Assembly (NCBI GenBank): GCA_028710135.1
Contig: JAQUSS010000018.1
Coordinates: 1-32,731 of the forward strand
DNA length: 32,731 nt
Source of the DNA: Gemmiger sp.
Lineage (GTDB): Bacteria > Bacillota > Clostridia > Oscillospirales > Ruminococcaceae
Direction: 5' to 3'
The notes beneath the pieces were generated by a model, which worked only from the letters and a program-made list of their open reading frames with translations, did not search any database and was not told where the DNA came from. Every line of letters starts with the position of its first letter. Position 1 is the first letter of the stretch. The position numbers and the translations under genes are program-made. Positions 11,799 through 27,236 of this stretch are shown here, piece by piece.

Positions 11799-12854
11799 TC
11801 ATTCGCACTTGGGCAGCGCCCGCAGGGTGGAGGATTCGCGGATAATCAGTTCGGTATCCAGCAGCGTTTTCTTGTTGGGGGCATCGGGCATCGTCATTTT
11901 TTCAAACAGGGCCTCGGCAGCCAAAAAGCCCAGTTGGGTGCGGGGCTGGCTCACCGTGCTGACCGAGGGAACCAAACACTTGGTCACATCCATATTATCA
12001 AACCCCACCAGCGCCACATCCTCCGGCACACGCAAACCGGCCAAATGGCAGGCCCGCAGCACCGAGATTGCGTACACATCCGAAGCGCAAAACACCGCAT
12101 CCGGCGGGTCCGGCAGGCTCAACAACTGCATCATCGCGGAAATCGAAAAATCAATAAGGATATCCGGCAGGCTGACCACATAGCTGGGGTCGTAGGGGAT
12201 GCCTGCATCGGTCAGCGCCATACAGTAGCCCTTCAAGCGGGTACGGGCGTACTGATACCGTATCGGCCCGTTTAAAAAAGCAACCTTGCGGCGGCCCAGC
12301 GAAATTAAATGCGAAACTGCGCTGCGGGCCGCACTGACGTTATCCACACTAATATAGGGGGTATCTACCTCCTGGTTATACTCCGAGCACTGCACCAACG
12401 GCACCGTTTCGTTCAAGCGGCGGCAGAGCGGTGTTTCCAACTGGTTCAACGTGATAAGCCCTGCAACCCGGTAGCGCTTGAGCAGCGAAACCATCGCATC
12501 CACCGATTCATTGTTGATGTGGGATTCGGTAATCATCATGGTATAGCCGCGCTGGCGGACACTGGCGTGGGCCCCCTGGATAACCTCCTCATAAAAAGGG
12601 TTGGAAAAGGAGGGGACATTGAGCAAAATCAGGCCGGAATCCCGCTCGGGCTCCGGTTCGTGGGTAGCAGGTGCCTCCGGCAGGGTGTAACCCAGTGCCT
12701 TTACAGCATCTAACACGCGGGCGCTCGTTTCTTCCTTAACGATGCCCCTGCAATTGAGTACGCGGGAAACCGTGGCCGGGGAAACCCCCGCTGTCGCTGC
12801 CACCGTGGCAACGGTAACCTTCTTCCCTTTGATACCCGCAACAGAATCAACCAT
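11799..12854 (-). CDS. LacI-family transcriptional repressor
   Basis: This 351-residue repressor has an N-terminal helix-turn-helix VTVATVAATAGVSPATVSRVLN (residues 13-34), a hinge region, and a periplasmic-binding-protein-like sensor domain with AGLITLNQLETP, HLISLGRRKVAFLNGP and the typical DVALVGFDNMDV segment near 280-291. The start at 12854 follows GAGG seven bases upstream. It is divergent from the long ABC/oxidoreductase operon, and three GAAA..TTTC palindromes in the shared 393-base gap are the expected operators. It most likely responds to the imported sugar-like ligand or an intermediate and controls both transcripts. Confidence 0.92.
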   Translation of the reverse strand: MVDSVAGIKGKKVTVATVAATAGVSPATVSRVLNCRGIVKEETSARVLDAVKALGYTLPEAPATHEPEPERDSGLILLNVPSFSNPFYEEVIQGAHASVRQRGYTMMITESHINNESVDAMVSLLKRYRVAGLITLNQLETPLCRRLNETVPLVQCSEYNQEVDTPYISVDNVSAARSAVSHLISLGRRKVAFLNGPIRYQYARTRLKGYCMALTDAGIPYDPSYVVSLPDILIDFSISAMMQLLSLPDPPDAVFCASDVYAISVLRACHLAGLRVPEDVALVGFDNMDVTKCLVPSVSTVSQPRTQLGFLAAEALFEKMTMPDAPNKKTLLDTELIIRESSTLRALPKCE

Positions 12855-12952: not shown

Positions 12953-12966
12953 ATGAAAAGTTTCAT
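12953..12966. promoter_or_regulatory. LacI-type operator 1
   Basis: ATGAAA-AG-TTTCAT, a six-base-arm palindrome around a 2-base centre. It has the same half-site as the two other palindromes in this gap and is nearest to the repressor promoter. Confidence 0.55.
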
Positions 12967-12979
12967 AATTCTCTAAATT

Positions 12980-12995
12980 AATGAAATGTTTCATT
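12980..12995. promoter_or_regulatory. LacI-type operator 2
   Basis: AATGAAA-TG-TTTCATT, seven-base perfect arms. Starts of operators 1 and 2 are 27 bases apart; operator 3 lies about 160 bases away in the operon leader, a spacing that permits DNA looping by a tetramer. Confidence 0.6.
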
Positions 12996-13066
12996 GAAAA
13001 GCATGGTGGAAATAGATAACTATTTACCAATAAGTGTGTAAAAAATAGAGAATAGATGAAATTCTA

Positions 13067-13095
13067 TTGCTTCCTTCCCCTGAATGTGCTAATCT
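13067..13095 (+). promoter_or_regulatory. promoter of the ABC/oxidoreductase operon
   Basis: -35 TTGCTT (13067-13072), 17-base spacer, -10 TAATCT (13090-13095). The expected leader is about 145 bases and carries operator 3 roughly 40 bases after the start of transcription. Confidence 0.55.
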
Positions 13096-13141
13096 GTTTT
13101 CAGAAACAAACGCCGGATATCTGAAACAAAAGCAGCAAGGC

Positions 13142-13157
13142 AATGAAACGTTTCATT
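13142..13157. promoter_or_regulatory. LacI-type operator 3
   Basis: AATGAAACGTTTCATT is a perfect 16-base palindrome with a central CG, the hallmark of LacI-family sites. It lies downstream of the predicted operon promoter and could act as a roadblock. It is the best of the three copies. Confidence 0.75.
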
Positions 13158-13247: not shown

Positions 13248-14297
13248 ATGAAAAAGCTTTCTCGTCGCCAGTTCCTGCGCACCGCCAGCGTCCTTATGGC
13301 CGCCACTGTATTAACGGCCTGCGGCGCTACCGCCACCAGCTCCAGCTCCGGCGCTTCCGTTGCCGCCTCCTCGGCGGCAACCTCCGACACCGCCACCGAT
13401 GTAAAGACGTACAAATTTGCATACGCCTACGCAAACATGGACGAAAACAATATGCGCACCCTAAAGGGCATCCAGATGTACGTTGACGAGCTGAACGCCA
13501 CCGGCAAATACGACATCGAATTCCTCTACACGGACGCACAATCTCAGGTTGACAAGCAGATTGCGGATGTGGAATCCCTGATTGCGCAGCAACCCGACCT
13601 AATTTTGATGAGCGCGGTGGATACCGTTGGCTCCATCCCCTGCCTGCAAGCCATCCATAACGCCGGCATCATCGCGGTGGATGACCGTGGCTGCGACACC
13701 GAATATAAAGATGTAAAGTTCACCGGTTTTGACGAGGATAACATTGGCCTTCGCCTGCAAGAGGCCGTTCGTACTTACCTGGAGCAGAACCCTGATATCA
13801 ACCTCAAAGCCGGCGGCATCTACGGCCTGGCCGCGCAATCCGAGCAGCTAAAGCGGGTGGATTATCTGAAGGCCCTGGCCGAGGAAATGCCCGACCGCCT
13901 GGAAATCATCGAAACCCAGTATTGTGATTGGTCCACCGACCGTGCAACCTCCACCGTGGAAGACTGGATGCAGCGCTACCCCGAAATGAACGCCATCTTC
14001 ACCGCCTCCGACGATATGGGCCTGGGTGCCTGCAATGCGCTTACCGCTTCCGGCCGCGAGGATGTTTTGGTCACCTCTGTTGACGGCACCCAAATCGGCC
14101 TCCAGCTGGCCACCGCCGCCGATCAGTACTTTATCACCATTGCCGCCAACCAGGAGGCCATCACCCGCCATCAGGTCGATTTCTTCATGGAGATGATTGA
14201 TGGCACCTACACCGAGCCCGAATACAAATGCCCGCCCGAGTGCTTTGCCATTGTCACCCCTGATAATGTAGCGACCGTGGATATGGGCTCCATCTAA
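13248..14297 (+). CDS. sugar ABC transporter binding lipoprotein (ribose/inositol type)
   Basis: This 349-residue solute-binding protein belongs to the periplasmic-binding-protein cluster that works with RbsA/RbsC-type importers. The N-terminus KKLSRRQFLRTASVL carries a twin-arginine-like motif (SRRQFL) and ends in a lipobox, LTACG, so it may be exported folded and then lipidated. A Ser/Ala linker follows. The mature domain has the sugar-binding pattern: FAYAYANMDENNMRTLKGIQ, DVESLIAQQPDLILMSAVD, DDRGCD and TASDDMGLGACNAL. The start follows AGGAGG. It is the first gene of the LacI-controlled operon and presumably defines the imported compound, which could be a pentose, cyclitol or glycoside. 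Confidence 0.9.
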   Translation: MKKLSRRQFLRTASVLMAATVLTACGATATSSSSGASVAASSAATSDTATDVKTYKFAYAYANMDENNMRTLKGIQMYVDELNATGKYDIEFLYTDAQSQVDKQIADVESLIAQQPDLILMSAVDTVGSIPCLQAIHNAGIIAVDDRGCDTEYKDVKFTGFDEDNIGLRLQEAVRTYLEQNPDINLKAGGIYGLAAQSEQLKRVDYLKALAEEMPDRLEIIETQYCDWSTDRATSTVEDWMQRYPEMNAIFTASDDMGLGACNALTASGREDVLVTSVDGTQIGLQLATAADQYFITIAANQEAITRHQVDFFMEMIDGTYTEPEYKCPPECFAIVTPDNVATVDMGSI

Positions 14298-14343
14298 AAA
14301 AGCAGGCATATCTTTGGCAAGCCCATAAATTGTTGCTCTGGCA

Positions 14344-14368
14344 GGGGGGCGGTGAAAGCCCGCCCCCC
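14344..14368 (+). terminator. intercistronic hairpin (attenuator or mRNA stabiliser)
   Basis: A nine-base GC stem (14344-14352 with 14360-14368) and a seven-base loop lie between the binding-protein and ATPase genes, followed only by a weak TCTCTTTAT tail. Such hairpins commonly keep binding-protein mRNA in excess over the transporter genes. It is probably not a full terminator, since the downstream genes lack a promoter I can see. Confidence 0.55.
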
Positions 14369-14447
14369 TCTCTTTATAAAGTGTGTGCCGTATCGCACAG
14401 TGCACGGCAGCGCAACGCCCGCACGGAAAAGAAAGGGATTGTACCGT

Positions 14448-15968
14448 ATGAGTGAAGAAGTAATTTTGAAAATGGAGGGCATCACCAAGCTGTTCCCCGG
14501 TGTACGCGCCTTAGATAAGGTGTCGCTGGAACTGCGCAAGGGCGAGGTACACGCCGTAATCGGTGAGAACGGTGCCGGGAAATCCACCCTCATGAAGGTT
14601 CTTTTGGGCATTTACCATGCCGATGAAGGTTCCATCACCTATAAAGGTAAAAAGGTTCAGTTCAGCAGCCCGCTAAACGCTTTAAGCGCCGGCATCGCCA
14701 TGATTCACCAGGAAATCAGCTTGGTGCCCACCATGGATGTGGCCGAAAACATCTGGCTGGGCCGCGAAAAGCTGACCATGAAAAACGGAATGATCAACCG
14801 GGAAAACCGTTTTAAAATGACCGCAGAGATTTTCAAAAAGCTAAACATTGATTTGGATCCCCGTGCCATGGTACGGGACCTTTCGGTGGCCAATATGCAG
14901 ATGGTTGAGCTAGCCCGCGCGGCTTCCTACAATGCGGATATCATCATCATGGACGAACCCACCTCCGCACTGGCCAACGAGGAAATCCAAACCCTGTACC
15001 GCATCGTTCACGACCTGCAGGCGGCAGGCAAGTCCATCATCTTTATCTCCCATAAGCTGGAGGAAATTTTCGATATCTGCGACCGGGTTTCCATCTACCG
15101 CGACGGCCACTATGTAGATACCCGCAACTGCAACGAGCTAACGCAGGAAGAACTCGTCACCATGATTGTTGGCCGCGAGATTACACAGCAGTTCCCCAAG
15201 CAGGAATCCAAAATCGGGGATGTCGTGCTGGAAGTAAAAAATTTCAACAGCCTGGGCGTGTTCCAAGATATCAATTTTACGGTGCGCAAGGGCGAGATAC
15301 TGGGCATCAGCGGGCTGGTAGGTGCAGGCCGCACCGAAATCATGCGCGCGCTGTTCGGTGCCGACCCACGGGATACCGGCGAGGTATACCTGGATGGCAA
15401 AGAGATTCGCATCCACAACGTACAGGACGCGCTGAACGCCGGTATCTCGATGTTAACAGAGGACCGTATGCGTTCCGGTTCCATCTATACCATGTCGGTC
15501 AAGGGCAACACCACCATCGCTTCCTTCCGCAATTTCTGTAGCAAGGGCCTTGGCGTCATCAACAGCAAAAAAGAAAACGAGGCCTTTGAAAAATCCCGCC
15601 ACACGCTAGAGGTAAAGTGTGCCTCAGAAAACCAGCTTATCAAAGACCTTTCCGGCGGTAACCAGCAAAAGGTTTTGATTGGCCGTTGGCTGATGACCAA
15701 CCCCCGGGTGCTGATTGTGGATGAGCCCACCCGCGGCATTGATGTGGGCTCAAAATCAGAGATTCACCGCCTGATCAGCCAGTTGGCCTGCCAAGGGATG
15801 GCCGTCATCATGATTTCTTCCGAGATGGCAGAGATTATGGGTATGAGCGACCGCATCCTGGTGGTACGCCACGGGAAAATTGTTTATGAATGCGACCGCA
15901 AGGATGCCACGCAGGAAACCCTGATCACCCACGCCTTTGGCGCGCAAAAAACAAAAAAGGACGCATAA
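14448..15968 (+). CDS. sugar ABC transporter ATPase, two-domain (RbsA/MglA type)
   Basis: This 506-residue protein is a tandem ATPase. Domain 1 has Walker A GENGAGKST near residues 38-46, signature LSVANMQMVELARA and Walker B IIIMDEPTSAL. Domain 2 has a degenerate Walker A, GLVGAGRTE, signature LSGGNQQKV and Walker B VLIVDEPTRGID, the usual RbsA/MglA asymmetry. ATG 14448 is used because AAAGGGA precedes it and MSEEVILKMEGITKLFPGVRAL is the family's normal N-terminus; an in-frame extension to 14352 would run through the intercistronic hairpin. It energises uptake with the permease at 16004. Confidence 0.95.
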   Translation: MSEEVILKMEGITKLFPGVRALDKVSLELRKGEVHAVIGENGAGKSTLMKVLLGIYHADEGSITYKGKKVQFSSPLNALSAGIAMIHQEISLVPTMDVAENIWLGREKLTMKNGMINRENRFKMTAEIFKKLNIDLDPRAMVRDLSVANMQMVELARAASYNADIIIMDEPTSALANEEIQTLYRIVHDLQAAGKSIIFISHKLEEIFDICDRVSIYRDGHYVDTRNCNELTQEELVTMIVGREITQQFPKQESKIGDVVLEVKNFNSLGVFQDINFTVRKGEILGISGLVGAGRTEIMRALFGADPRDTGEVYLDGKEIRIHNVQDALNAGISMLTEDRMRSGSIYTMSVKGNTTIASFRNFCSKGLGVINSKKENEAFEKSRHTLEVKCASENQLIKDLSGGNQQKVLIGRWLMTNPRVLIVDEPTRGIDVGSKSEIHRLISQLACQGMAVIMISSEMAEIMGMSDRILVVRHGKIVYECDRKDATQETLITHAFGAQKTKKDA

Positions 15969-16003
15969 CTGTATTGCTTGCAGATAGAAAGGAAGCCCGA
16001 AAA

Positions 16004-17005
16004 ATGGTGACACGTAATAAACGCAAAAATTTCTTTGATGCCCCCTTCGGAAAGTTCCTCATGAACAACAAGGCCTTTGCCATCCTGATTGTGATGGCGT
16101 TGATCGTGGCCAGTATGTCCGATGTATTTCTTACCCCCTCCAACCTGCTCAACCTGATTCGCCAGGTGGCCTACAGTGTTACGCTGGCAGCCGGCTACAC
16201 CCTGTTGCTTAGCTCCGGCAACATCGATCTTTCCATCGGCTGTATGGTTGGCCTGGTGGGCGTGGCAATGGGCAAAATGCTGGTATCGGGGGTTCCCATC
16301 CCGCTGGCCATTTTTGCTGCCATTATTTTTGGCGCACTGCTGGGTACGCTGAACGCGCTGGTCGTCAACCTGTTTGGCCTTCCCCCTTTTATCGTCACGC
16401 TGGCCTCCATGTCCGTATTCAAGGGTGTAACCTATATCTGGACCAAAATGGTGCCCATCTCCAACCTGCCCAAGGCCTTCACCGCCATTGGGCAGGAGTA
16501 CACCTTTGGCATCCCCAACCAGGTGTACATCATGTTCATCATGGTGATCATCATGGGCTTTATCCTCTACAAAACCAAGTTTGGCCGCTACGCTTTGGCA
16601 ATGGGTGGCAACCGTGAAGCCACCCGCCTGGCCGGCATCAACGTGGACCGTATGAACGTGGCCGTCTATGCCACCATGGGTGTGTATGTGGCCATTGCCG
16701 CCATGATGCTTACCGCCCGCTCCGCCTCCGCGCAGGTTTCCGCCGGGCAAAACACGGAAATGGATGCCATTGCAGCCGTTGTCGTGGGCGGCACGCCCAT
16801 GTCCGGTGGCTCCGCCAACATTGTGGGTACCGTATTCGGCTGCCTGATTGTAGGCGTAATCAACAACGGGTTGAACCTGATGGGCGTTGATGCCAACTGG
16901 CAATTGGTGGCCAAGGGCATCATGATCTTGTTCGCCATCATGTTGGATGTCATCTCCAGCAAAATTGCAAACAATATGTCGAAAAAGAGAATGGCCAACG
17001 GCTGA
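16004..17005 (+). CDS. sugar ABC transporter permease (RbsC type)
   Basis: This 333-residue inner-membrane permease of the RbsC/BPD_transp_2 family has about eight to ten hydrophobic segments. Typical motifs are LLSSGNIDLSIGCMVGLVG (about 66-85) and YALAMGGNREATRLAGINVDR (about 192-212), then AVVVGGTPMSGGSANIVGT (about 259-277). ATG 16004 is preceded by AAAGGAAG and starts a short basic N-terminus; an earlier in-frame start would overlap the ATPase gene by 79 bases. With the upstream genes it completes one importer. Confidence 0.94.
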   Translation: MVTRNKRKNFFDAPFGKFLMNNKAFAILIVMALIVASMSDVFLTPSNLLNLIRQVAYSVTLAAGYTLLLSSGNIDLSIGCMVGLVGVAMGKMLVSGVPIPLAIFAAIIFGALLGTLNALVVNLFGLPPFIVTLASMSVFKGVTYIWTKMVPISNLPKAFTAIGQEYTFGIPNQVYIMFIMVIIMGFILYKTKFGRYALAMGGNREATRLAGINVDRMNVAVYATMGVYVAIAAMMLTARSASAQVSAGQNTEMDAIAAVVVGGTPMSGGSANIVGTVFGCLIVGVINNGLNLMGVDANWQLVAKGIMILFAIMLDVISSKIANNMSKKRMANG

Positions 17006-17037
17006 TTGGCCCCCAGGCTAGAACGGGAGAATCGATT

Positions 17038-18189
17038 GTGAAGAAAAGAAAAGTAGCCGTCATTGCCACAGGCTTTACCGGCCAGCAACACACCGAGGCC
17101 ATCCGCCGCATACCCGGCAACGAGGTTGCTGCATTGGTAGACCCCCACGTGGCCGCGTTGAAGGCCAAGGGCCAGGCCCTGGGTGTGGAAGCGCTATATA
17201 CCGATTATAAACGGATGATTGACGAGATCCGCCCAGATGTCATTCACAACTGCACCCCCAACGGGATGCATTACGAAATCAACAAATATGCGCTGGAGCG
17301 TGGCATCCATGTTTATTGCGAGAAGCCATTGGCCCTCACGGTGGCACAGGGTGAGGAGCTTGCCCACTTAGCCGCGCAGAACCATCTGGCCGCGGGGGTA
17401 AACTTCAATTACCGCAACAATGCCATGGTGCAGGAAATGCGCGCGCGTGTGGCCAGCGGCGCGGTTGGGCGGGTCTTTCATGTAACGGGCCAATACCTGC
17501 AAGATTGGATGATGCTGGATACCGATTACAATTGGCGCCTTACCGCCGATATGGGCGGTGCCTCCCGCACCATTGCAGATATCGGCAGCCACTGGTTCGA
17601 TACGGCCCAGTGCGCCATGGGGCAGAATATTGTGGCTGTGCGCGCCCAAACGCTGACGGTTCACCCCTTCCGCAAAAAGCCAGCCCAGGAGGTTGAAACC
17701 TTTGCCAAAGCACAGAAGAGCAACTACACGCTTGTTCCCATTAATACCGAGGATGCCGCATTCCTGCTGGTTCGCTTTGCGGATGGCACCCTGGGCAGCG
17801 TAACCCTTTCCCAAGTGAGCGGCGGCCACCTGAACGATTTCCGCCTTGAGATAGCGGGCGAAAAATGCGCCCTGGAATGGCAGCAGGAGCGGTGCGATAC
17901 CCTGACGGTAGGCACGCGAGAATTTGGCATCCAGACCCTTCGCACGGCCCCCGGCAGCATGACCGGCGATGCCAACCGCTACACCTGCCTGCCCGGTGGC
18001 CACCCCGACGGTTGGGCCGATGCCCTAAAAAATGCAGTATCCGAATTTTACACCTCCATCGAAAACGGTACCTTTGCCCAAACCGGCATGACCTATGCCA
18101 CCTTTGCGGACGGAGCCCGGATTATGAAGCTGGTGGATGCCTGTATGCAAAGTGCAAAATCCGGCGAGTGGGCCGAAGTGAGAGAATAA
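17038..18189 (+). CDS. Gfo/Idh/MocA-family NAD(P)-dependent dehydrogenase 1
   Basis: This 383-residue oxidoreductase starts at GTG 17038 after GGGAG. It has the Rossmann segment VAVIATGFTGQQH, catalytic CEKPLAL (Glu95-Lys96-Pro97) and the substrate-site DIGSHWFDTAQ (Asp181, His185). The YLQDWMMLDTDYNWR segment (about 153-167) is the pattern I associate with Gfo/Idh/MocA members acting on glycosides or keto-sugars rather than simple inositols. Family members oxidise a sugar ring hydroxyl, often at C3, or reverse this. It is first of the catabolic genes after the importer and overlaps nothing; the next gene begins 14 bases on. Substrate is unknown; an inositol dehydrogenase role is an alternative. 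Confidence 0.9.
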   Translation: MKKRKVAVIATGFTGQQHTEAIRRIPGNEVAALVDPHVAALKAKGQALGVEALYTDYKRMIDEIRPDVIHNCTPNGMHYEINKYALERGIHVYCEKPLALTVAQGEELAHLAAQNHLAAGVNFNYRNNAMVQEMRARVASGAVGRVFHVTGQYLQDWMMLDTDYNWRLTADMGGASRTIADIGSHWFDTAQCAMGQNIVAVRAQTLTVHPFRKKPAQEVETFAKAQKSNYTLVPINTEDAAFLLVRFADGTLGSVTLSQVSGGHLNDFRLEIAGEKCALEWQQERCDTLTVGTREFGIQTLRTAPGSMTGDANRYTCLPGGHPDGWADALKNAVSEFYTSIENGTFAQTGMTYATFADGARIMKLVDACMQSAKSGEWAEVRE

Positions 18190-18203
18190 AAGGAGAGGTT
18201 TTC

Positions 18204-19166
18204 ATGAAACTTGGTGTAATTACCGTCCCCCTGTACGGGATGGAGCTGGCAAGCTGCCTGGCCTACCTGAAAGGGTTGGGGGTACAAACCGTGGAGCTAG
18301 GTTGCGGCGGCAACCCCGGCACCGGGCATTGTGACGCAAAGGCCCTGCTTGCCGATGCAGGCAAGCTAAAGGCTTTCCGGGATACCATCCGCGCTTCCGG
18401 CATCGGCATCAGTGCCTTCTCCTGCCATGGCAACGGAGTGCACCCCAACCAAGCCACCGCCGCCAAGGACAATGAGGACCTGCAAAACGCGATCCGCCTT
18501 GCGGCGGAAATGGAGGTTGGGGTAGTCAATACCTTCTCCGGCTGCCCCGGTGACAGTGCCGCTTCCCAGCATCCCAACTGGGTCACCTGTGCTTGGCCCG
18601 ATGAATATCAGACCGTTTTAGACTACCAGTGGAACGATGTACTGCTGCCCTACTGGCGCAAGAATGCCGATTTTGCCAAGGCGCACGGCGTAAAGGTCGC
18701 CTTCGAGATGCACCCCGGCTTCTGTGTTTACAACACCGAAACCATGCTGCGCATCAACCGGGAAATCGGCAATTCTTTAGGTGCAAACTTTGATCCCAGC
18801 CATCTGGTGTGGCAGGGCATGGACCCGGTAGCGGCCATCCGGGAATTGAGCGGCATCATCTACAATGTCCATGCGAAAGACTGCCGTGTAGATTCCCTCA
18901 ACACCGCCCGCATCGGCGTGCTGGATACCAAGCACTATGGTGACGAGCTGCACCGCGCCTGGATTTTCCGCACCGTGGGTTATGGCCACGATACCCAGTA
19001 TTGGAAGGACATTGTTTCGGCGTTGCGCCTGGCGGGTTTTGACGGTACCATGGCCATTGAGCACGAGGATAGCCTAATGTCGGTGCGGGAAGGGTTGGAA
19101 AAGGCCATCCGCTTTATGAAGGATGTTTTAATCTACGAAAAGCCCGCCGAAATGTGGTGGGCCTAA
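18204..19166 (+). CDS. sugar phosphate isomerase/epimerase-like TIM-barrel protein 1
   Basis: This 320-residue TIM-barrel protein belongs to the xylose-isomerase-like (AP-endonuclease family 2) superfamily. The probable divalent-metal ligands are Glu168 (AFEMHPGF), Asp197 (FDPSH), His223 (VHAKD) and Glu286 (AIEHED). A VNTFSGCPGD segment sits near residue 108. ATG 18204 follows AGGAG and is the natural N-terminus, MKLGVITVPLYG; an upstream extension would run through the dehydrogenase in another frame. Members of this superfamily paired with Gfo/Idh/MocA enzymes isomerise, epimerise, dehydrate or cleave 3-keto-glycosides. Which reaction is done here cannot be read; its 320 residues make it longer than the second TIM-barrel in the operon. 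Confidence 0.88.
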   Translation: MKLGVITVPLYGMELASCLAYLKGLGVQTVELGCGGNPGTGHCDAKALLADAGKLKAFRDTIRASGIGISAFSCHGNGVHPNQATAAKDNEDLQNAIRLAAEMEVGVVNTFSGCPGDSAASQHPNWVTCAWPDEYQTVLDYQWNDVLLPYWRKNADFAKAHGVKVAFEMHPGFCVYNTETMLRINREIGNSLGANFDPSHLVWQGMDPVAAIRELSGIIYNVHAKDCRVDSLNTARIGVLDTKHYGDELHRAWIFRTVGYGHDTQYWKDIVSALRLAGFDGTMAIEHEDSLMSVREGLEKAIRFMKDVLIYEKPAEMWWA

Positions 19167-19185
19167 GGAAAGGAAGGCAAAACCC

Positions 19186-19659
19186 ATGAAATTTGTAGAG
19201 ATTGGCCATATTGCCCTGCGTGCAAAGGATCCGGCAAATTTTGAAAAGTTTTACACCGAGGTGCTGGAACTACCCAAGGCGTTTGATTTAACAACAAGCG
19301 CGGGCAAGGTTTGGATTCGCTATTACCAACTGCCCAGCGGCCAGTTTGTCGAGGTTTTCCCCGGGGATGCGCTGCCCGGCTTTGACGCGAAGGACAACCA
19401 CTATACCGGCGAGAACCGCAAATGCAATCGCTCCCATTTCCATGCCTGCTTTGAGGTGGATGCCCGCCACGAGGCCTACCGCGATATGGCAAAAAAGGGC
19501 GTTGCCATCAGCCATGCCACCAACGATTCCGTTGGTATGTGCGGAAGCTGGTGTTCCTTCATTACCGACCCGGAGGGCAACGAGTGGGAGCTGATGGAGT
19601 TTTCACCGGTCAGCCGCCAGTTGGGCGACCAACTGGATAACATGAGCTACAACGGCTAA
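19186..19659 (+). CDS. VOC-family protein 1
   Basis: This 157-residue protein of the vicinal oxygen chelate (glyoxalase/fosfomycin-resistance/dioxygenase) superfamily has two paired beta-alpha-beta-beta-beta modules. The likely metal ligands are complete: His8 (GHIALRA), Glu56 (FVEVFPG), His86 (HACFEV) and Glu135 (DPEGNEWELME). VOC enzymes hold a divalent metal and act on enediolate-type intermediates in isomerisation, epimerisation, lyase or glutathione reactions. In an anaerobe and in this operon an isomerase or lyase role on a keto-sugar is more plausible than ring-cleaving dioxygenase. AAGGAAGG precedes the start. Confidence 0.85.
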   Translation: MKFVEIGHIALRAKDPANFEKFYTEVLELPKAFDLTTSAGKVWIRYYQLPSGQFVEVFPGDALPGFDAKDNHYTGENRKCNRSHFHACFEVDARHEAYRDMAKKGVAISHATNDSVGMCGSWCSFITDPEGNEWELMEFSPVSRQLGDQLDNMSYNG

Positions 19660-19670
19660 GGAGGAGAACC

Positions 19671-20201
19671 ATGCTGAATTATTTGAAGGGCCTGACCCAT
19701 GTAACCTTTACCTGCAAAAATTTCCCTGCCATGCGCGCCTTTTACCGGGATACACTGGGCTTGAAGGAGGTTTTTGCTCTGCCGTACAACGAGGCCATCC
19801 TCCAAGGTTTTGTGGAAACCGGCTATGCGGTAGACGGCCTAAAACCCGGTGAGATTTGGATTGTTTATCTGGAGGTTGCGCCGCGCCAGTTTGTGGAACT
19901 TTTCAATCTTCCCTATCACGGCGAAAACGACACCCAAAACGAGGGCTTCCACCACTTCTGCCTGCGGGTGGAGGATATTGTGGCGGCCGCGCGGGAGCTG
20001 GAAGCCAAGGGGGTGCCTTTATATAACGGCCCCCGTTGGTTGAATGCCCCCTTCACCAGCCCCTACCCCGAAAATCCCATCGCAGAAGGCTGCCAGGGTC
20101 AGTGTGGCTCTCTCGCCTTCTATATTCAGGATCCAGAAGGAAACGAAATTGAAATCATGCAGTACACCACCGATTCTCTTCAGGTAAAATGCCGCGTATA
20201 A
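19671..20201 (+). CDS. VOC-family protein 2
   Basis: This 176-residue second VOC protein begins 12 bases after the first. The metal site looks intact: His10 (LTHVTFTC), Glu76 (FVELFNLP), His95 (HHFCLRV) and Glu151 (DPEGNEIEIMQY). It shares the pattern of VOC protein 1 but has an insertion with the SPYPENPIAEGCQGQCG segment before the last strand, so the two are not recent duplicates. Close packing and good AGGAG spacing suggest co-translation. Substrate unknown; as a separate subunit it could form a heterodimer with VOC 1. Confidence 0.85.
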   Translation: MLNYLKGLTHVTFTCKNFPAMRAFYRDTLGLKEVFALPYNEAILQGFVETGYAVDGLKPGEIWIVYLEVAPRQFVELFNLPYHGENDTQNEGFHHFCLRVEDIVAAARELEAKGVPLYNGPRWLNAPFTSPYPENPIAEGCQGQCGSLAFYIQDPEGNEIEIMQYTTDSLQVKCRV

Positions 20202-20214
20202 AGGAGAAAACGCC

Positions 20215-20988
20215 ATGAAATTTGGTTATCAGCTTTACTCTGCCCGGGCCCTGTGCAGCAATCGGGCCGGGTTGGTAGATACAATTGAAAAAATTGCAGC
20301 CATGGGCTATGATGGGGTAGAATTCTTTCAGTACGAGGGTATCCCCGCCACTGAACTGAAGGCACTGCTTGCCGGGCTGGGGCTCGAAGGTTTTAACGCG
20401 CACGTACAGCTTGAACGCTGGGAGGCTGATCCTGAAGGCGAGGCACGCTATGCCGCCGAGGCGGGCATCCCCTGCATGACCATCCCCTGGCTTGCACCGG
20501 CCCTGCGCACCGCCCAGGGTTTGGCGCGGGTTCGCCAGTTGGTACCCCAGCTGCTGGCCCAATGTCGGGCGTACGGTGTGCAGCTTCTCTATCATAACCA
20601 CGATTTTGAATTTGCGCCCGGCACCACCGGCCGCTATATGTTGGATGATATTCTGGCAGCCGACCCTGCCCTCGGCCTGGAACTGGATACCTTTTGGGCC
20701 CTTTATGCCGGGGTTTCCCCAACGTCCTACATGGAAAGCCACCAAAACCGGCTCAAACTGATTCATGTCAAAGATTACTGCAAGCTGGATGGCGGGCCCG
20801 TAAACGAAGGGCGGGAATCCCCCACCTTCTGTGCCATCGGCACCGGGAAGATGGATAACGCCCCCATCCTTGCCCAGGCCCAAAAAATCGGCGTAGCGTG
20901 GGCCTGCGTTGAGCAGGATAATAGCCGCATTCCCGTGTTGGAAGCCGCAAAGCTATCCATCGATAGCCTGCGGGCGGCAGTAAAATAA
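20215..20988 (+). CDS. sugar phosphate isomerase/epimerase-like TIM-barrel protein 2 (YcjR-like)
   Basis: This 257-residue TIM-barrel protein starts after AAAGGAG at 20215. It shows the pattern of the shorter isomerase/epimerase subfamily: QLYSARAL at the start, YHNHDFEF (126-133), LELDTFWALYAG (155-166), LIHVKDY (182-188), a GTGKMD turn, and CVEQD (231-235). Glu, Asp, His and Glu from these segments probably bind a metal. E. coli YcjR, of similar size and subfamily, epimerises a 3-keto-glycoside at C4; others act on inosose. It works beside the Gfo/Idh/MocA enzymes, which would produce and consume the keto group. The assignment to the YcjR branch is by motif memory only. Confidence 0.85.
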   Translation: MKFGYQLYSARALCSNRAGLVDTIEKIAAMGYDGVEFFQYEGIPATELKALLAGLGLEGFNAHVQLERWEADPEGEARYAAEAGIPCMTIPWLAPALRTAQGLARVRQLVPQLLAQCRAYGVQLLYHNHDFEFAPGTTGRYMLDDILAADPALGLELDTFWALYAGVSPTSYMESHQNRLKLIHVKDYCKLDGGPVNEGRESPTFCAIGTGKMDNAPILAQAQKIGVAWACVEQDNSRIPVLEAAKLSIDSLRAAVK

Positions 20989-21026
20989 AAAGCAGCAAAC
21001 GCCGCATAAAGAAAGGACGAAAGCAA

Positions 21027-21500
21027 ATGGCAACCATGAAAAACCCGTTGGATCTAAAAGGGTTCATTCAAATCGCAATCCTTGTTGAGGATATTGATAA
21101 GGCCCGCCACGAATGGGCTGACATTTTGGGTGTCCCCGTGCCGGAAATCATCGAGCAGCCCAAACCGGCAGGCAGCAACCCCGGCCTAACCTATCGTGGC
21201 CGGGAAACAAGCTACGGCCTCAAGCTGGCCGTGATACAAGCGCCGCAGGGCTTTATCATCGAACTGCACCAGGTAACCGATGATGGGGACAGTACCTTCA
21301 AGGAGTTTGTGCAAAAGCATGGCTACGGCGTGCATCACCTGGGGTTCCAGGTGGGGGATCGCCGGGATGCTGTGGTGCGCGAGCTGGAAGAGCGTGGCTA
21401 CCCGCTACGCACCGTGGGCATCTACCCAGATGGCAGCTGGACCATTGCCGACACAGAGGACACGTTGGGCGTAAATTTGAACATTAAGCCCCATATGTAA
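21027..21500 (+). CDS. VOC-family protein 3, with altered metal site
   Basis: This 157-residue VOC protein resembles the methylmalonyl-CoA epimerase branch in length and in the order FIQIAILVEDIDKARHEWAD, FIIELHQ and YGVHHLGFQV. Two of the four usual ligand positions are changed: Gln15 stands where the first His is expected and Asn152 where the last Glu is expected; Glu79 and His104 remain. It may bind metal weakly, use other residues, or be a non-catalytic partner. AAAGGA precedes the start, and it lies 38 bases after the second TIM-barrel gene, the largest gap between catabolic genes here. Confidence 0.82.
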   Translation: MATMKNPLDLKGFIQIAILVEDIDKARHEWADILGVPVPEIIEQPKPAGSNPGLTYRGRETSYGLKLAVIQAPQGFIIELHQVTDDGDSTFKEFVQKHGYGVHHLGFQVGDRRDAVVRELEERGYPLRTVGIYPDGSWTIADTEDTLGVNLNIKPHM

Positions 21501-21514
21501 AATAGGAGGAACTT

Positions 21515-22402
21515 ATGGCAGGGAAATATAGCGATTACTGCAAAAACCGTGCACAGCACTGCACCATCCATACCTATGATTTGGAAACCGGCACCGTTAC
21601 CGATTTAATTCATTTTGATACAGCCGTGGAAGCTCCCAACTGGACCAAAGATGGGAAATACCTGATTTATAACAGCATGGGCAAGCTGTGGCGGTTGGAT
21701 TTGGCCACCAAGGCAATCACCGCCATCCCCACCGGCATGGTAGATACCTGCAATAACGACCATGTTCTTGCCCCGGATGGCAGTGGCATCGCCTGTTCCA
21801 GCGGGCAAAATGACGATGAAACCTCCAACATCTATCTGGTAGATTATGCCACCGGCACCGCCAAGCGGGTGGTCTCCGAAAACTTAAGCTACCTGCATGG
21901 TTGGTCCCCGGATGGGAAAACGCTGGCATTTTGCGCCGGGCGGGCCTACCAGGGCCGGTTGGAATGGGATATCTATACGGTTCCGGTGGAGGGCGGCCCC
22001 GAAACCAGGCTGACAAATGCCCCCGGCCTGAACGACGGCCCGGAGTATTCCCCCGATGGCAAAAAAATCTGGTTCAACTCGGTACGCACCGGCCTGATGC
22101 AGGCCTATGTGATGAATGCCGATGGCAGTGCACAGACCCAAATGACCTTTGATGAGGATATGAACACTTGGTTCCCCCATATTTCGCCGGATAATACCAA
22201 GGTCGTTTACATTGCCTACCATAAGGGCGACCTGGAACCGGGCCAACACCTGCCGGATTTGAATGTAGAAATCCGCATGATTCCCGCCGCGGGTGGCACC
22301 CCCAAAACGCTGGTCAAGCTGTTCGGCGGGCAGGGCAGCATGAATGTAAACAGTTGGTCGCCGGATAGCAAACAGTTCGCTTTTGTCAGTTACCACCGGT
22401 AA
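21515..22402 (+). CDS. cytoplasmic TolB-like beta-propeller protein
   Basis: This 295-residue protein has about six PD40/TolB-like repeats, each with a W/x-S-P-D-G/S-K core: NWTKDGKYLIYN, HVLAPDGSGIACS, HGWSPDGKTLAFC, EYSPDGKKIWFNS, HISPDNTKVVYIA and SWSPDSKQFAFVS. It lacks a signal peptide and starts after AGGAGGAACTT, so it stays in the cytoplasm, unlike TolB. The NDGPEYSPDGK and KLFGGQGSMNV segments are recognisable from a family of unknown function found beside plant-glycan and oxidoreductase genes. Propellers of this class can be lyases, hydrolases or lactonases, or scaffolds. Its place between the third VOC gene and the second dehydrogenase suggests an enzymatic step on an intermediate. 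Confidence 0.82.
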   Translation: MAGKYSDYCKNRAQHCTIHTYDLETGTVTDLIHFDTAVEAPNWTKDGKYLIYNSMGKLWRLDLATKAITAIPTGMVDTCNNDHVLAPDGSGIACSSGQNDDETSNIYLVDYATGTAKRVVSENLSYLHGWSPDGKTLAFCAGRAYQGRLEWDIYTVPVEGGPETRLTNAPGLNDGPEYSPDGKKIWFNSVRTGLMQAYVMNADGSAQTQMTFDEDMNTWFPHISPDNTKVVYIAYHKGDLEPGQHLPDLNVEIRMIPAAGGTPKTLVKLFGGQGSMNVNSWSPDSKQFAFVSYHR

Positions 22403-22433
22403 CGCTCTTGCCCGGCAAGGAGGAGATAGCCCC

Positions 22434-23438
22434 ATGAAAAAAGTCAAACTTGGCCTATGTGGCACCGGCCTATGCGCCCGGCTTTTCCATCAACCCGCCC
22501 TGGCCCAAATGGCAAGCCACTTTGAAATTACCGCCATTTGCAGCGGCAAGGAAGAAAACTGTGCCCACTACGCCGCGCTGGGGGGCTGGCAAGCCACCTA
22601 CTACACCGATTGGCGGCAGCTGGTGGCAGACCCAGAGGTGGAGGCCATCCTCAGTTCCTACCCTTATTTTCTTTCGGAAGCGCTGATTCAAGCGTGTGTG
22701 CAGCGGGGCAAGCATATTTTGGTGGAAAAGCCGCTGTGTGATAGCTGCGCCGCCGCCAACACACTGGCACAGCTGGATACCCGCGGCACCGTGGTTGGCG
22801 TAGCCGAAAATTGGCTCTACCTCCCCGCCGTACACACAATTCGCGCCCTCCTCGCCTCCGGTGAGATTGGCAGCCTGCGTTCCGTTTATCTATTCTCCAT
22901 GTATGAAATGGAGCTAGGAAGCGAATATCTTGCCCAAAGCACCTGGCGCAAAACCGCCAAGGGCGGTATGATTCTTGATAGGGCCATCCACACCATCGCT
23001 CTCGAACACGCCATTGTCGGCCCTGTAGCCGAAGCCTGTGGCCTTCGCCAAAGCGTTCGCCCGGTTCTGGGGGAAAGTGATACCCTGTACACCGTATTCC
23101 GCCATAGCAACGGGGTTGTTGGCAGCCTGAACGTCTGTGCCTCGGCTGCCGGCCTTGAAACTGACCACACCATTGCCTTCATTGGCACCGAGGGCACCCT
23201 CAAGGTGGGGGGCTTCGTCAACGAGGTGACCATTCACGGCAAAGAGGGAGAGCGCACCCTCTCCATCGATAATGGGGATAACGGTTACCTGGCCGAGCTG
23301 CAAGATTTTTACACCGCCATCACCACCGGCAGCGAGATGGTCAGTTCCCTGCGCCGAGCCGTCATGGATTTGAACACTGCGCTTGCGCCGCTGGAAAGCC
23401 CCGGCCAATGGCTTACGCTGCCAAGCTACGCGCCATAG
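22434..23438 (+). CDS. Gfo/Idh/MocA-family NAD(P)-dependent dehydrogenase 2
   Basis: This 334-residue oxidoreductase starts at ATG 22434 after AAGGAGGAG; a start 51 bases earlier would overlap the propeller gene and ignore that site. The Rossmann segment is KLGLCGTGLCARLFH, the catalytic motif HILVEKPLCDS (Glu98-Lys99-Pro100), and the Asp/His pair is in MILDRAIHTIALEH (Asp182, His186). It is shorter than dehydrogenase 1 and lacks the DWMMLDTDYNWR signature, so it is not a duplicate. Two such enzymes in one operon fit an oxidation at the beginning and a reduction at the end of a keto-sugar route. Confidence 0.9.
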   Translation: MKKVKLGLCGTGLCARLFHQPALAQMASHFEITAICSGKEENCAHYAALGGWQATYYTDWRQLVADPEVEAILSSYPYFLSEALIQACVQRGKHILVEKPLCDSCAAANTLAQLDTRGTVVGVAENWLYLPAVHTIRALLASGEIGSLRSVYLFSMYEMELGSEYLAQSTWRKTAKGGMILDRAIHTIALEHAIVGPVAEACGLRQSVRPVLGESDTLYTVFRHSNGVVGSLNVCASAAGLETDHTIAFIGTEGTLKVGGFVNEVTIHGKEGERTLSIDNGDNGYLAELQDFYTAITTGSEMVSSLRRAVMDLNTALAPLESPGQWLTLPSYAP

Positions 23439-25601: not shown

Positions 25602-26561
25602 TTACAACTTTTGTTCTACATAACCAGTATATGCTTTCTCGTATAGAAAGTCAACAATTTTTTTCGCGAATTTGTAACTTGATACCAGTGTAGCATTGGC
25701 TAAAAAGTAGTCCTTGTTTCGAGGAAGCATAGTATCAAAGAATTTCTTTAGCTTTCGATATGTATACTGCCGCGTTTTCAGCGAGGTGCCGGTCTTGTCA
25801 AAGAGAAACAGTGATGCTACAAAATCATGAATCACAGGGTTTGACAGTTTCGATACTTTCGATTTTGACCTTTTCAAAGATGGAATTTGTGAAACATAGC
25901 TGTCTACCTGATTGGAAACCCTGAATGTGCGAGAGTAAGGCCGCTGCAAGCTGTTGAGAAGGCAGTTGTTATGAGCAGCTGCGTTCCTCAACCATTTTGT
26001 GGGCAACAGCAGGTTGCACAGCTTACTGTTCCATCCACCATTGTTTTTACTGTATAAGCGATAGAGGTTGATAAACTGCCCGAACGATAGAACCTCTATG
26101 GCGTTCCAAACGGCATACCCCTCTTGCTCCATCTTTCCTACGAGGTCTTTGCAATAGGAAACCTTCCCTTTGTTGACAATATCGGTTTTCACGCTCGGGT
26201 ATTCAGCGAAGTATTGTGCCATGAGAGAGTAGCCATCCTCCTTGGGGTTTTGGCTAATGTCTGCCATAAGGCCAACCTTGAGGAAGTGCTCAATATCCTG
26301 CGTGAGTGCTACAATCTGCTTGCGCAAAAAAGCATCTAAGGTTGAAAGCTCCTTCAAATAGGCAAAATCCAAGTCATGATATTTTTCAGAATCTTTTTCC
26401 TTTTGGAAATCCTTTGCGAATGCTTTTGCCTTGAAAAAATAGGTGCTTTCGCGCAGGAACTGCTCGGCCTCTGCTTCAGAACAGATTTCAAATTTAATCC
26501 CGCAGTGGTCGCGCATATAGGCGATTTGTTCTTTTACAGTCAGTTTTTCTTTTCGTGGCAT
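25602..26561 (-). CDS. Abi_2 (AbiD/AbiF-type) abortive-infection protein
   Basis: This 319-residue protein matches the Abi_2 family of phage-resistance proteins found singly in many Bacillota. Typical features are LTVKEQIAYMRDHCGIKF at the start, AFLRKQIVALTQDIEHFLKV (about 77-96) and the R-x4-H motif RNAAAH (Arg182, His187), which is the HEPN ribonuclease-like signature, followed by NCLLN. The start is ATG 26561 after AAGGGGAT; the in-frame extension to 26681 would include the promoter. Its base composition is clearly more AT-rich than the neighbours, its promoter and terminator are self-contained, and it sits next to a tRNA gene: all suggest horizontal transfer. It probably acts alone by halting translation or growth of infected cells; the trigger is unknown. 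Confidence 0.88.
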   Translation of the reverse strand: MPRKEKLTVKEQIAYMRDHCGIKFEICSEAEAEQFLRESTYFFKAKAFAKDFQKEKDSEKYHDLDFAYLKELSTLDAFLRKQIVALTQDIEHFLKVGLMADISQNPKEDGYSLMAQYFAEYPSVKTDIVNKGKVSYCKDLVGKMEQEGYAVWNAIEVLSFGQFINLYRLYSKNNGGWNSKLCNLLLPTKWLRNAAAHNNCLLNSLQRPYSRTFRVSNQVDSYVSQIPSLKRSKSKVSKLSNPVIHDFVASLFLFDKTGTSLKTRQYTYRKLKKFFDTMLPRNKDYFLANATLVSSYKFAKKIVDFLYEKAYTGYVEQKL

Positions 26562-26594
26562 TTTATCCCCTTGTTTCGATAAAAAAGTTGCTTT

Positions 26595-26623
26595 ATTATA
26601 CCATGATTTCAAGCATAAAACAA
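26595..26623 (-). promoter_or_regulatory. promoter of the Abi-like gene
   Basis: On the minus strand: -35 TTGTTT (26618-26623), 17-base spacer, extended -10 TGG-TATAAT (TATAAT at 26595-26600). The leader is about 27 bases and holds the AAGGGGAT ribosome site. Confidence 0.8.
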
Positions 26624-26967
26624 TCAAGATGGTATGCTTATTAGAAATAGAAATTTTTATCCAGCCGCCTATAGCCATCACCGGAAACGATTATTCTGTC
26701 ATCCCCAAGCCATGCAAGGCCTGCCGGTTTCGCGAGTGGCCTACCCTTTTCGCTTTGTCTGCTTTGAGCAATGGTCGATTATCCCCTATCATTTTGGAAA
26801 AACAGTCCTGTGGTTCTGTATCGCCACACCCACGGATAATTTTGTATGCAAAATTACCGAGCATAGCTTTGCGCGCAGCACGCCGGAGGTGACCTCCAAA
26901 ATCGTGCTTTTGGTTGTAAAAACTCCCGCCACCCCGCAAATCCTTCACAGAAAAGGTCAAGAAAGCG
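26624..26967. other. gap between the Abi-like gene and the tRNA terminator
   Basis: The region has open frames on both strands but none with a ribosome site or a recognisable protein, and one plus-strand frame runs on through the tRNA. It may be a decayed fragment of an element that inserted at the tRNA 3' side; I saw no clear attachment-site repeat. Confidence 0.35.
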
Positions 26968-27011: not shown

Positions 27012-27088
27012 TGGTGGGCCATCCAGGACTTGAACCCGGGACCAAGCGGTTATGAGCCGCCGGCTCTAACCAACTGAGCTAATGGCCC
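27012..27088 (-). tRNA. tRNA with CAU anticodon, probably tRNA-Ile2 (or elongator Met)
   Basis: The 77-base cloverleaf reads 5' from 27088: acceptor stem GGGCCAT paired with ATGGCCC, D arm GCTC..GAGC, anticodon stem and loop CTCATAA (anticodon CAU), T arm with TTCAAGT, discriminator A and an encoded CCA (27012-27014). A CAU tRNA can be initiator, elongator Met or Ile2 with a lysidine-modified C. The CTCATAA loop followed by CCGCTTGGTC resembles Ile2 tRNAs, which decode AUA after TilS modification. It is not an initiator, because the acceptor stem is fully paired and the anticodon stem lacks the three G:C pairs typical of initiators. Confidence 0.93.
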
Positions 27089-27108
27089 TTACTCAATCAG
27101 CAATGGCT

Positions 27109-27137
27109 ATTATAGCAGATTTTTTGCCGGTTGCCAA
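27109..27137 (-). promoter_or_regulatory. tRNA promoter
   Basis: On the minus strand: -35 TTGGCA (27132-27137), 17-base spacer, -10 TATAAT (27109-27114). It starts transcription about 14 bases before the mature tRNA end. Confidence 0.88.
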
Positions 27138-27236
27138 CCATTTTTTGCGGTTTCAGGCTTCTTTTTCGTGTTTTTTAAGCCCCGCCGCTCAATTTTTTGC
27201 CTGCCGCCGCATAGGTTGTACCCTGGGGGTGGTTCG

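What the first reader, a model, noticed from the sequence alone, without database searches (positions are those of the whole stretch)
13248..23438. Unusual oxidative sugar/glycoside operon with three VOC proteins and a cytosolic propeller
After a ribose-type importer the operon has two non-duplicate Gfo/Idh/MocA dehydrogenases, two TIM-barrel isomerase/epimerase proteins, three VOC proteins and a TolB-like propeller, and no glycoside hydrolase, kinase or aldolase. Gfo/Idh/MocA plus TIM-barrel pairs are known to oxidise glycosides at C3, then epimerise or beta-eliminate the 3-keto intermediate and re-reduce the product (E. coli ycj genes; C-glycoside and alternative glycan-cleavage pathways). 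The three VOC proteins and the propeller are not part of those sets as I know them, so they may supply new steps on keto-sugar enediolates. An inositol/cyclitol route is the main alternative.
Basis: partly seen in the sequence, partly recalled or inferred. Interest (0 to 1): 0.75.

Follow-up and report, generated by a model that had tools for sequence, protein, structure and literature searches.

The report
Keto-glycoside operon with extra proteins
A bacterium carries one tightly packed operon that probably cleaves imported sugar conjugates by oxidising, eliminating, hydrating and reducing them instead of hydrolysing them, and it adds three small metal-site proteins and a propeller protein whose roles in this chemistry are not known.

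Summary
In detail: one operon (13248-23438) behind a divergent LacI gene, with importer, two Gfo/Idh/MocA dehydrogenases, two TIM barrels, three VOC proteins and a TolB-like propeller. The core belongs to a described kind. The short TIM barrel is closest in the PDB to the O-glycoside beta-eliminase AtOGE (8BVK, E 9e-20), with its metal and base residues conserved. The long one matches 2-hydroxy-3-keto-glucal hydratase (8RO4, E 9e-9). GFO1 is levoglucosan-dehydrogenase-like. This is the oxidise-eliminate-hydrate-reduce set of PMC7676230 and PMC10628242. VOC3 and the propeller recur as a pair: adjacent in 4 of 6 intact loci found through VOC3 (window included), with GFO1 in the cluster in 5 of 6. 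VOC3's subfamily has Asn where relatives have the last metal-ligand Glu. An Arthrobacter plasmid joins the propeller to two TIM and three Gfo genes. Against a dedicated role: in an unnamed Bacillota family the propeller stood without Gfo, TIM, VOC, ThuA or DUF1080 genes in 25 of 40 stretches. Substrate and the VOC/propeller reactions are unproven. New variant of a known kind.

The parts
11799..12854 (-). LacI-family regulator, divergent
   Evidence: NCBIfam LacI-type models, none over its cut-off, so ligand unknown
12953..13156 (.). three palindromic operator-like sites (12953-12966, 12981-12994, 13143-13156)
   Evidence: 3 in window, none elsewhere in the genome held at up to 1 mismatch
13248..14297 (+). 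sugar-type substrate-binding protein
   Evidence: PF13407 111.6 bits
14448..15968 (+). double ABC ATPase
   Evidence: PF00005, two stretches
16004..17005 (+). ABC permease
   Evidence: sequence and position; not scanned against Pfam
17038..18189 (+). GFO1, levoglucosan-dehydrogenase-like Gfo/Idh/MocA protein
   Evidence: E95 K96 P97 and D181/H185 invariant in 6 of 6
18204..19166 (+). TIM1, hydratase-like TIM barrel
   Evidence: 2ZDS E 4e-20 and 8RO4 E 9e-9; E168 D197 H223 E286 invariant in 3 of 3
19186..19659 (+). VOC1
   Evidence: PF00903; H8 E56 H86 E135 invariant in 5 of 5 sequences
19671..20201 (+). VOC2, paralogue of VOC1
   Evidence: PF00903; same four columns
20215..20988 (+). TIM2, O-glycoside beta-eliminase-like TIM barrel
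   Evidence: 8BVK E 9e-20; residues checked
21027..21500 (+). VOC3, methylmalonyl-CoA-epimerase-like VOC with N152
   Evidence: PF13669; 3GM5 92 bits with profile A1
21515..22402 (+). PROP, cytosolic TolB-like propeller of the 2OJH family
   Evidence: 2OJH 304 bits with profile A2; H83 H128 H222 H245 identical in 15 of 15
22434..23438 (+). GFO2, second Gfo/Idh/MocA protein
   Evidence: 1ZH8 113 bits

Best explanation
The operon imports a glycoside and cleaves it without hydrolysis. Inferred steps: a Gfo enzyme (most likely GFO1) oxidises C3 of the sugar with NAD+; TIM2, an AtOGE-type metal enzyme, beta-eliminates the aglycone to give a 2-hydroxy-3-keto-glycal; TIM1, an AtHYD/LgdB2-type enzyme, hydrates it to a 3-keto-hexose; the other Gfo enzyme reduces that to a free hexose, recycling NADH. 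VOC1 and VOC2 have complete glyoxalase-I-type metal sites and probably move a proton on an alpha-hydroxyketone or enediol of this pathway (epimerising or tautomerising the 3-keto sugar), so that sugars other than glucose, or the reactive keto-glycal, can be handled. VOC3 and PROP are a separate two-gene module that acts together on a keto-sugar or keto-glycoside. Shown here: gene content, family placement, conserved residues, recurring neighbourhoods. Inferred: every reaction, the substrate, and which Gfo acts first.
For: TIM2 best PDB match 8BVK (E 9.3e-20) with H127, H129, E156, D158, H184, E233 aligned to AtOGE H132, H134, E161, D163, H189, E233 (roles from passages of PMC10628242). TIM1 to 8RO4 hydratase. 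GFO1 profile to 6A3F, 217 bits, which I recall as levoglucosan dehydrogenase. LacI, SBP, ATPase and permease genes with two Gfo and two TIM genes are also the content of the B. smithii lgd locus (passages of PMC7676230). Metabacillus has LacI-SBP-ATPase-permease-GFO1(42%)-TIM1(51%), LacI there on the same strand. Gfo-TIM2-like-ThuA-TIM1-like-Gfo in Listeria. TIM2-like-Gfo-Gfo-TIM1-like-PROP-Gfo in Arthrobacter StoSoilB13. VOC3-like, TIM2-like, VOC1/2-like in a row in Agrobacterium larrymoorei; VOC3-like, TIM2-like, one other gene, PROP in Qingshengfaniella. Gfo, VOC3-like (34%), TIM-like in a row in G003, a genome of the same genus (L011). VOC3-PROP adjacency and VOC3-GFO1 linkage.
Against: The relation to the characterised enzymes is distant, and no NCBIfam cut-off is met (levoglucosan dehydrogenase 158 of 650 bits). 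GFO1 relatives also lie in a Pantoea cluster beside a GMC oxidoreductase and C-glycoside-type genes, where the Gfo would more likely be the reductase, so the order of GFO1/GFO2 is open. No VOC gene was found in the Arthrobacter (window proteins as queries) or Listeria stretches or annotated in the Metabacillus one. PROP lacks such neighbours in 25 of 40 stretches of an unnamed Bacillota family. VOC1/VOC2 relatives in G051, G143 and G438 are not beside homologues of the pathway genes, except two Gfo genes in one of the two G438 loci.
Confidence: 0.62

Rival explanations
1. Cyclitol/inosose catabolism: the Gfo enzymes are inositol dehydrogenases and the TIM barrels are inosose dehydratase/isomerases.
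For: iolG (111.6 and 75.6 bits) and iolE (39.7 and 31.4 bits) models are matched at significant E-values.
Against: All four are far below the curated cut-offs of 355 and 290 bits; TIM1 and TIM2 match glycoside-pathway enzymes in the PDB; no IolD over cut-off in the genome, best 226 of 715 bits, though the genome is 88% complete. GFO1 and GFO2 also match a scyllo-inositol dehydrogenase structure, more weakly than their best hits.
Confidence: 0.12
2. An anhydrosugar (levoglucosan-type) operon proper, GFO1 being the dehydrogenase LgdA.
For: Levoglucosan dehydrogenase is the best NCBIfam match of GFO1, and 6A3F its second PDB match; same transporter genes and two-TIM two-Gfo content as the lgd locus.
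Against: 158 of 650 bits; the terms VOC, glyoxalase and TolB occur 0 times in the main text of the levoglucosan neighbourhood paper PMC10066097.
Confidence: 0.12
3. The VOC proteins serve the aglycone or detoxify reactive dicarbonyls made by the pathway (glyoxalase-like), rather than the sugar path itself.
For: VOC1/VOC2 have H-E-H-E positions and their profile matches methylmalonyl-CoA epimerase and glyoxalase I structures.
Against: Glyoxalase I cut-off not met (23.9 and 30.3 of 120 bits); a VOC3-like, TIM2-like, VOC1/2-like row recurs in Agrobacterium larrymoorei, which suggests a tie to the eliminase-type protein.
Confidence: 0.2
4. The propeller is a hitch-hiking gene of general function with no part in this pathway.
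For: 25 of 40 PROP stretches of an unnamed Bacillota family have none of the five families within 6 kb; Gfo alone is 5 of 40 against 1 of 20 controls, not significant. No such neighbour in the Parabacteroides, Spirosoma, S. meliloti and Streptomyces records.
Against: Gfo or TIM within two genes on the same strand in 7 of 16 plasmid records viewed, of 25 with a match (no control set for plasmids); any of five families 15 of 40 against 2 of 20 control stretches, one-sided Fisher P 0.023; beside VOC3 in eight loci, four of them found through PROP.
Confidence: 0.25

Closest known systems
Agrobacterium tumefaciens GlycDH-AtOGE-AtHYD-Gfo operon (PMC10628242)
   Same: two oxidoreductases and two TIM barrels; TIM2 matches AtOGE, TIM1 matches the hydratase entry 8RO4
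   Different: extra VOC1-3 and propeller; distant sequence relation
Bacillus smithii levoglucosan lgdA-B1-B2-C locus (PMC7676230)
   Same: LacI, SBP, ATPase and permease genes with two Gfo and two TIM genes; TIM sizes 257 and 320 aa are near the ~275 and ~325 given in PMC10066097
   Different: levoglucosan dehydrogenase cut-off not met; VOC and propeller added
Listeria Gfo-TIM-ThuA-TIM-Gfo cluster (L051)
   Same: TIM2-like 31%, TIM1-like 45%, two Gfo genes
   Different: ThuA, no VOC or propeller seen; I know of no assigned function
2OJH family (Atu1656), unknown function
   Same: nearly full-length match, 304 bits
   Different: none known; the names 2OJH and Atu1656 gave one unrelated paper in the library
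Methylmalonyl-CoA epimerase and glyoxalase I (VOC superfamily)
   Same: family; VOC1/2 keep the four ligand positions
   Different: cut-offs not met; VOC3 has Asn at the last ligand column

Membership tests
Oxidise-eliminate-hydrate-reduce four-enzyme glycoside pathway | two oxidoreductases and two PF01261 TIM barrels in one operon with an importer | tested here: met
Oxidise-eliminate-hydrate-reduce four-enzyme glycoside pathway | one TIM barrel with the beta-eliminase metal/base residues | tested here: met
   alignment to 8BVK, positions checked; roles
Oxidise-eliminate-hydrate-reduce four-enzyme glycoside pathway | second TIM barrel related to the hydratase | tested here: met
   E 9e-9 to 8RO4; its match to 2ZDS, of unknown function, is stronger (E 4e-20)
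Oxidise-eliminate-hydrate-reduce four-enzyme glycoside pathway | activity: 3-keto-glycoside cleaved to 2-hydroxy-3-keto-glycal, then hexose | not testable with these tools
   needs purified enzymes
Levoglucosan dehydrogenase (NF052479) | equivalog cut-off 650 bits | tested here: not met
   158.5 bits
C-glycoside deglycosidase (CGD alpha/beta) | small beta subunit (DUF6379, recalled) beside the TIM subunit | tested here: not met
   no such domain in the 10 of 11 operon proteins scanned
Inositol catabolism (iolG, iolE, iolD) | equivalog cut-offs | tested here: not met
Tol-Pal TolB | cut-off 343 bits of TIGR02800; export to the periplasm | tested here: not met
   121 bits; no export signal seen by eye
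Glyoxalase I (TIGR00068) | cut-off 120 bits | tested here: not met
   VOC1 23.9, VOC2 30.3 bits
Methylmalonyl-CoA epimerase (TIGR03081) | cut-off 115 bits and four metal ligands | tested here: not met
   VOC3 36.3 bits; N152 at the last ligand column
2OJH propeller family | full-length sequence match | tested here: met
   304 bits, profile positions 13-292 of 294

The most novel reading that the evidence does not exclude
VOC3 and the 2OJH-type propeller together form a new two-protein enzyme of keto-sugar metabolism, in which a VOC protein that has traded its last metal ligand for Asn and a propeller with a set of invariant His, Asp, Asn and Gln residues process a 3-keto-glycoside; VOC1/VOC2 add an epimerase step. 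This would give a first function to a structural-genomics orphan spread over at least four phyla.
Probability: 0.3. Interest if true: 0.68.

Novelty: new variant of a known kind. Interest (0 to 1): 0.5.

Why it matters
Non-hydrolytic cleavage of glycosides through 3-keto intermediates is a recent addition to carbohydrate chemistry, and it acts on bonds such as C-glycosides that ordinary glycosidases do not cut (from the papers' abstracts and general knowledge). This operon ties two unassigned protein groups, a VOC subfamily and the 2OJH propeller family, to that chemistry by neighbourhood, and gives a compact, testable set of eight proteins. If the pair proves catalytic, a widespread orphan family gets a function.

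Tried and rejected
Inositol route: considered and lowered. Defence link: not seen for the operon; an AbiD-like gene lies outside it. Search for the same operon in close kin: VOC3 matched in 3 of 61 genomes at E<=0.001, the window's own included. Class-wide, own genome included: VOC2 in 2 of 391 at 1e-12, PROP in 3 of 391 at 1e-40. Phylum-wide, own genome included: VOC3 in 7 of 299 at 1e-25, PROP in 2 of 398 at 1e-60. Of the six other VOC3 genomes I fetched 5; their VOC is 31-35% identical and no window Gfo/TIM homologue was detected there at 1e-3. L016 and the VOC hit L038 gave no pathway neighbours with window proteins as queries. Plasmid search with VOC3: no match at 1e-8.

Rows dropped before the VOC3 counts: places of 29-35% identity (in G003, G051, two in G000, six genomes, and second VOC genes in L069, L070, L086, L105 and elsewhere) were taken as outside the subfamily; the L008 match, a 56-residue stretch of the subfamily in no long frame and without PROP or GFO1 homologues on its contig, was left out as broken. 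With L008 the counts would be 4 of 7 and 5 of 7.

Papers: 2OJH/Atu1656 gave one unrelated paper; a search with VOC-family and keto-sugar words gave 10 papers seen as a listing, none of whose titles or abstract starts tie VOC proteins to this chemistry.
Full report
What is there. The window holds one operon of eleven genes on the + strand, 13248-23438, with a divergent LacI gene at 11799-12854. Starts were chosen by eye from upstream sequence; from the ATPase on, the gaps are 11-38 bases. The gap between LacI and the binding protein carries an exact ATGAAACGTTTCAT and two copies with one mismatch; 0 of 100 shuffles of the window gave three, and no further copy at up to one mismatch is in the 2.8 Mb genome held. 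The LacI protein therefore probably governs this operon alone. G+C of the operon is 0.547 against 0.596 and 0.597 left and right. Of 61 genomes searched (the window's own and 60 relatives) 3 have any VOC3 match, the nearest other at 49%. This fits an accessory, perhaps acquired, operon.

The core four enzymes. TIM2 (257 aa) finds in the PDB first 8BVK, E 9.3e-20, then five further entries named as sugar isomerase or xylose-isomerase-like proteins. 8BVK is AtOGE, the O-glycoside beta-eliminase; passages of PMC10628242 give its metal residues His132, Asp163, His189, weakly Glu233, an alternative site with His132, His66, Glu39 and Glu161, and the catalytic His134. The printed alignment pairs window H127, H129, E156, D158, H184 and E233 with H132, H134, E161, D163, H189 and E233. 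TIM1 (320 aa) matches 2ZDS (unknown function, E 3.6e-20) and 8RO4, named 2-hydroxy-3-keto-glucal hydratase (E 9.2e-9); its likely metal residues E168, D197, H223 and E286 are invariant in three homologues. A profile of GFO1 and five homologues matches 4H3V (222 bits) and 6A3F (217 bits) (that 6A3F is levoglucosan dehydrogenase is recalled, the listing says putative dehydrogenase). GFO2 matches 1ZH8 (113 bits) and, among named entries, 1,5-anhydrofructose reductase, scyllo-inositol dehydrogenase and a glucuronide-3-dehydrogenase. This is the content of the pathways described as oxidation, elimination, hydration and reduction in B. smithii (PMC7676230, abstract and passages) and A. tumefaciens (PMC10628242, abstract and passages). 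No NCBIfam cut-off is met by any of the eight enzymes, so the operon is a distant member, not a known operon re-found.

Independent neighbourhoods of the core. Metabacillus dongyingensis has LacI, SBP, ATPase, permease, GFO1 (42%) and TIM1 (51%) in the same order, LacI on the same strand. Listeria monocytogenes has Gfo, TIM2-like (31%), ThuA, TIM1-like (45%), Gfo. Pantoea piersonii has a GFO1-like gene (41%) and a TIM gene in a cluster with xylose-isomerase-like and DUF6379 genes, a GMC oxidoreductase and glucokinase; that TIM plus DUF6379 is the C-glycoside enzyme is recalled. There the Gfo would be the reductase, so which Gfo acts first here is open.

VOC proteins. VOC1 and VOC2 are diverged paralogues (27%). 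With three Rhizobiaceae relatives, the columns H8, E56, H86 and E135 are invariant in 5 of 5, the pattern of the glyoxalase I metal site (assignment recalled). VOC3 is a different branch, nearest to 3GM5, then far behind to other VOC structures including methylmalonyl-CoA epimerases. In 6 of 6 sequences of its own subfamily the column of the last ligand Glu is Asn (N152), while 4 of 4 outgroup relatives keep Glu; four further sequences carry the same GVNLNIK motif. In A. larrymoorei a VOC3-like, a TIM2-like and a VOC1/2-like gene lie in a row behind a sugar importer; in Qingshengfaniella a VOC3-like and a TIM2-like gene, then a mandelate-racemase-type gene, then PROP lie in a row, with a VOC1/2-like gene about 5 kb away. 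These are 22-28% identical to the window proteins. In G003, of the window's genus, a Gfo, a VOC3-like (34%) and a TIM-like gene stand in a row (L011; the last named by eye). So a link between VOC proteins and TIM barrels recurs, loosely.

VOC3 and PROP as a pair. Intact subfamily loci found through VOC3 itself: window, L007, L009, L069, L070, L071. PROP is adjacent in 4 of 6 (window, L007, L009 divergently, L071), and a GFO1 homologue is in the same cluster in 5 of 6, all but L009. The five others are 48-65% identical to VOC3, so this is not one recent copy. Hits below 36% and the broken L008 fragment were dropped; with L008 the counts are 4 and 5 of 7. In the family of G468, an unnamed Bacillota family with large genomes, PROP occurs in 66 of 295 genomes, 68 places. 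I fetched 40 of the 68 places with 6 kb on each side, and 20 control stretches 1-2 Mb off in the same contigs. VOC3 at 61-64% identity sits directly beside PROP in 4 of 40; these four were found through PROP.

PROP. It matches 2OJH, a protein of unknown function (Atu1656), over nearly its whole length (304 bits). In 15 homologues from four phyla E39, N42, N53, N80, N81, D82, H83, H128, D174, Q196, H222, H245, Q273 and N277 are identical in at least 14, which looks like a binding or active site; no model was available to show that they meet. Of the 25 plasmid records with PROP I viewed 16. Gfo or TIM lies within two genes on the same strand in 7 of 16: L021, L023, L025, L030, L075, L081 and, by my own reading of an unannotated record, L079. 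There is no control for this plasmid count, and the plasmid gene tables are incomplete. L079 (Arthrobacter StoSoilB13) has two permease-like frames (by eye), TIM2-like, Gfo, Gfo, TIM1-like, PROP, Gfo and a HbpS-like gene in one row. L030 and L075 have DUF1080, Gfo and PROP in a row; a relative of that DUF1080 in L017 scores as 3-keto-disaccharide hydrolase in Pfam (68.9 bits) and lies about 4 kb from PROP with a ThuA-like gene.

Results against. Of the 40 stretches from the G468 family 25 have none of Gfo, TIM, VOC, ThuA or DUF1080 within 6 kb. 15 of 40 have one or more against 2 of 20 controls (one-sided Fisher P 0.023); VOC alone 9 of 40 against 1 of 20 (P 0.08), Gfo alone 5 of 40 against 1 of 20 (P 0.34) (profiles built from my own small sets, so single labels may be wrong). 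This is mild enrichment, not obligate linkage. PROP has no such neighbour in four of the plasmid records viewed. The full VOC-VOC-TIM-VOC-propeller order was seen in no other locus examined. Two of the four VOC3 loci in the G736 family lack PROP. No VOC gene was found in L079 or the Listeria stretch with window proteins as queries, and none is annotated in the Metabacillus stretch. Thus the VOC and propeller genes are recurrent partners of this chemistry, not fixed members of it.

Literature. Main texts searched by term: vicinal oxygen, glyoxalase and propeller occur 0 times in PMC10628242; VOC, glyoxalase and TolB 0 times in PMC10066097; VOC and glyoxalase 0 times in PMC8563793; VOC, glyoxalase, vicinal oxygen and TolB 0 times in PMC12724307; glyoxalase, vicinal oxygen, propeller and PD40 0 times in PMC9007349. 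PMC7676230 was not searched for these words. The library lacks most subscription papers, so a description elsewhere cannot be excluded.

Verdict. Observation confirmed. The core is a new distant member of a described pathway kind. The added VOC proteins and propeller make it a new variant, with one recurring pair, VOC3-PROP, worth biochemical work. Substrate, reaction order and the roles of four of the eight proteins remain open.

Noticed in passing
window 25602-26681: An AbiD-like abortive-infection protein (64.9 bits) in a low-G+C stretch, near a tRNA-Met gene.
   Followed up: no
L012 8098-9119: The same genome has a second tandem pair of VOC genes (about 32% to VOC3) after importer-like genes, with a Gfo gene about 5 kb downstream.
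   Followed up: partly
L020, L023, L030, L075, L076, L079: A small HbpS-like/heme-degrading-domain gene lies within two genes of the propeller in these 6 of 16 plasmid records viewed; its role is unexplained.
   Followed up: no
   Followed up: no
L008 7885-8052: A Bacteroidaceae contig holds a 56-residue stretch 70% identical to the end of VOC3 in no long reading frame, perhaps a gene remnant or an assembly error.
   Followed up: partly
L026 8826-20841: The Metabacillus locus carries five TIM-barrel isomerase genes, two Gfo genes and an ABM-domain gene in one row.
   Followed up: partly
window 27082-28947: A GHL10 glycosyl-hydrolase-like protein (153.7 bits) lies downstream, outside the operon.
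   Followed up: no
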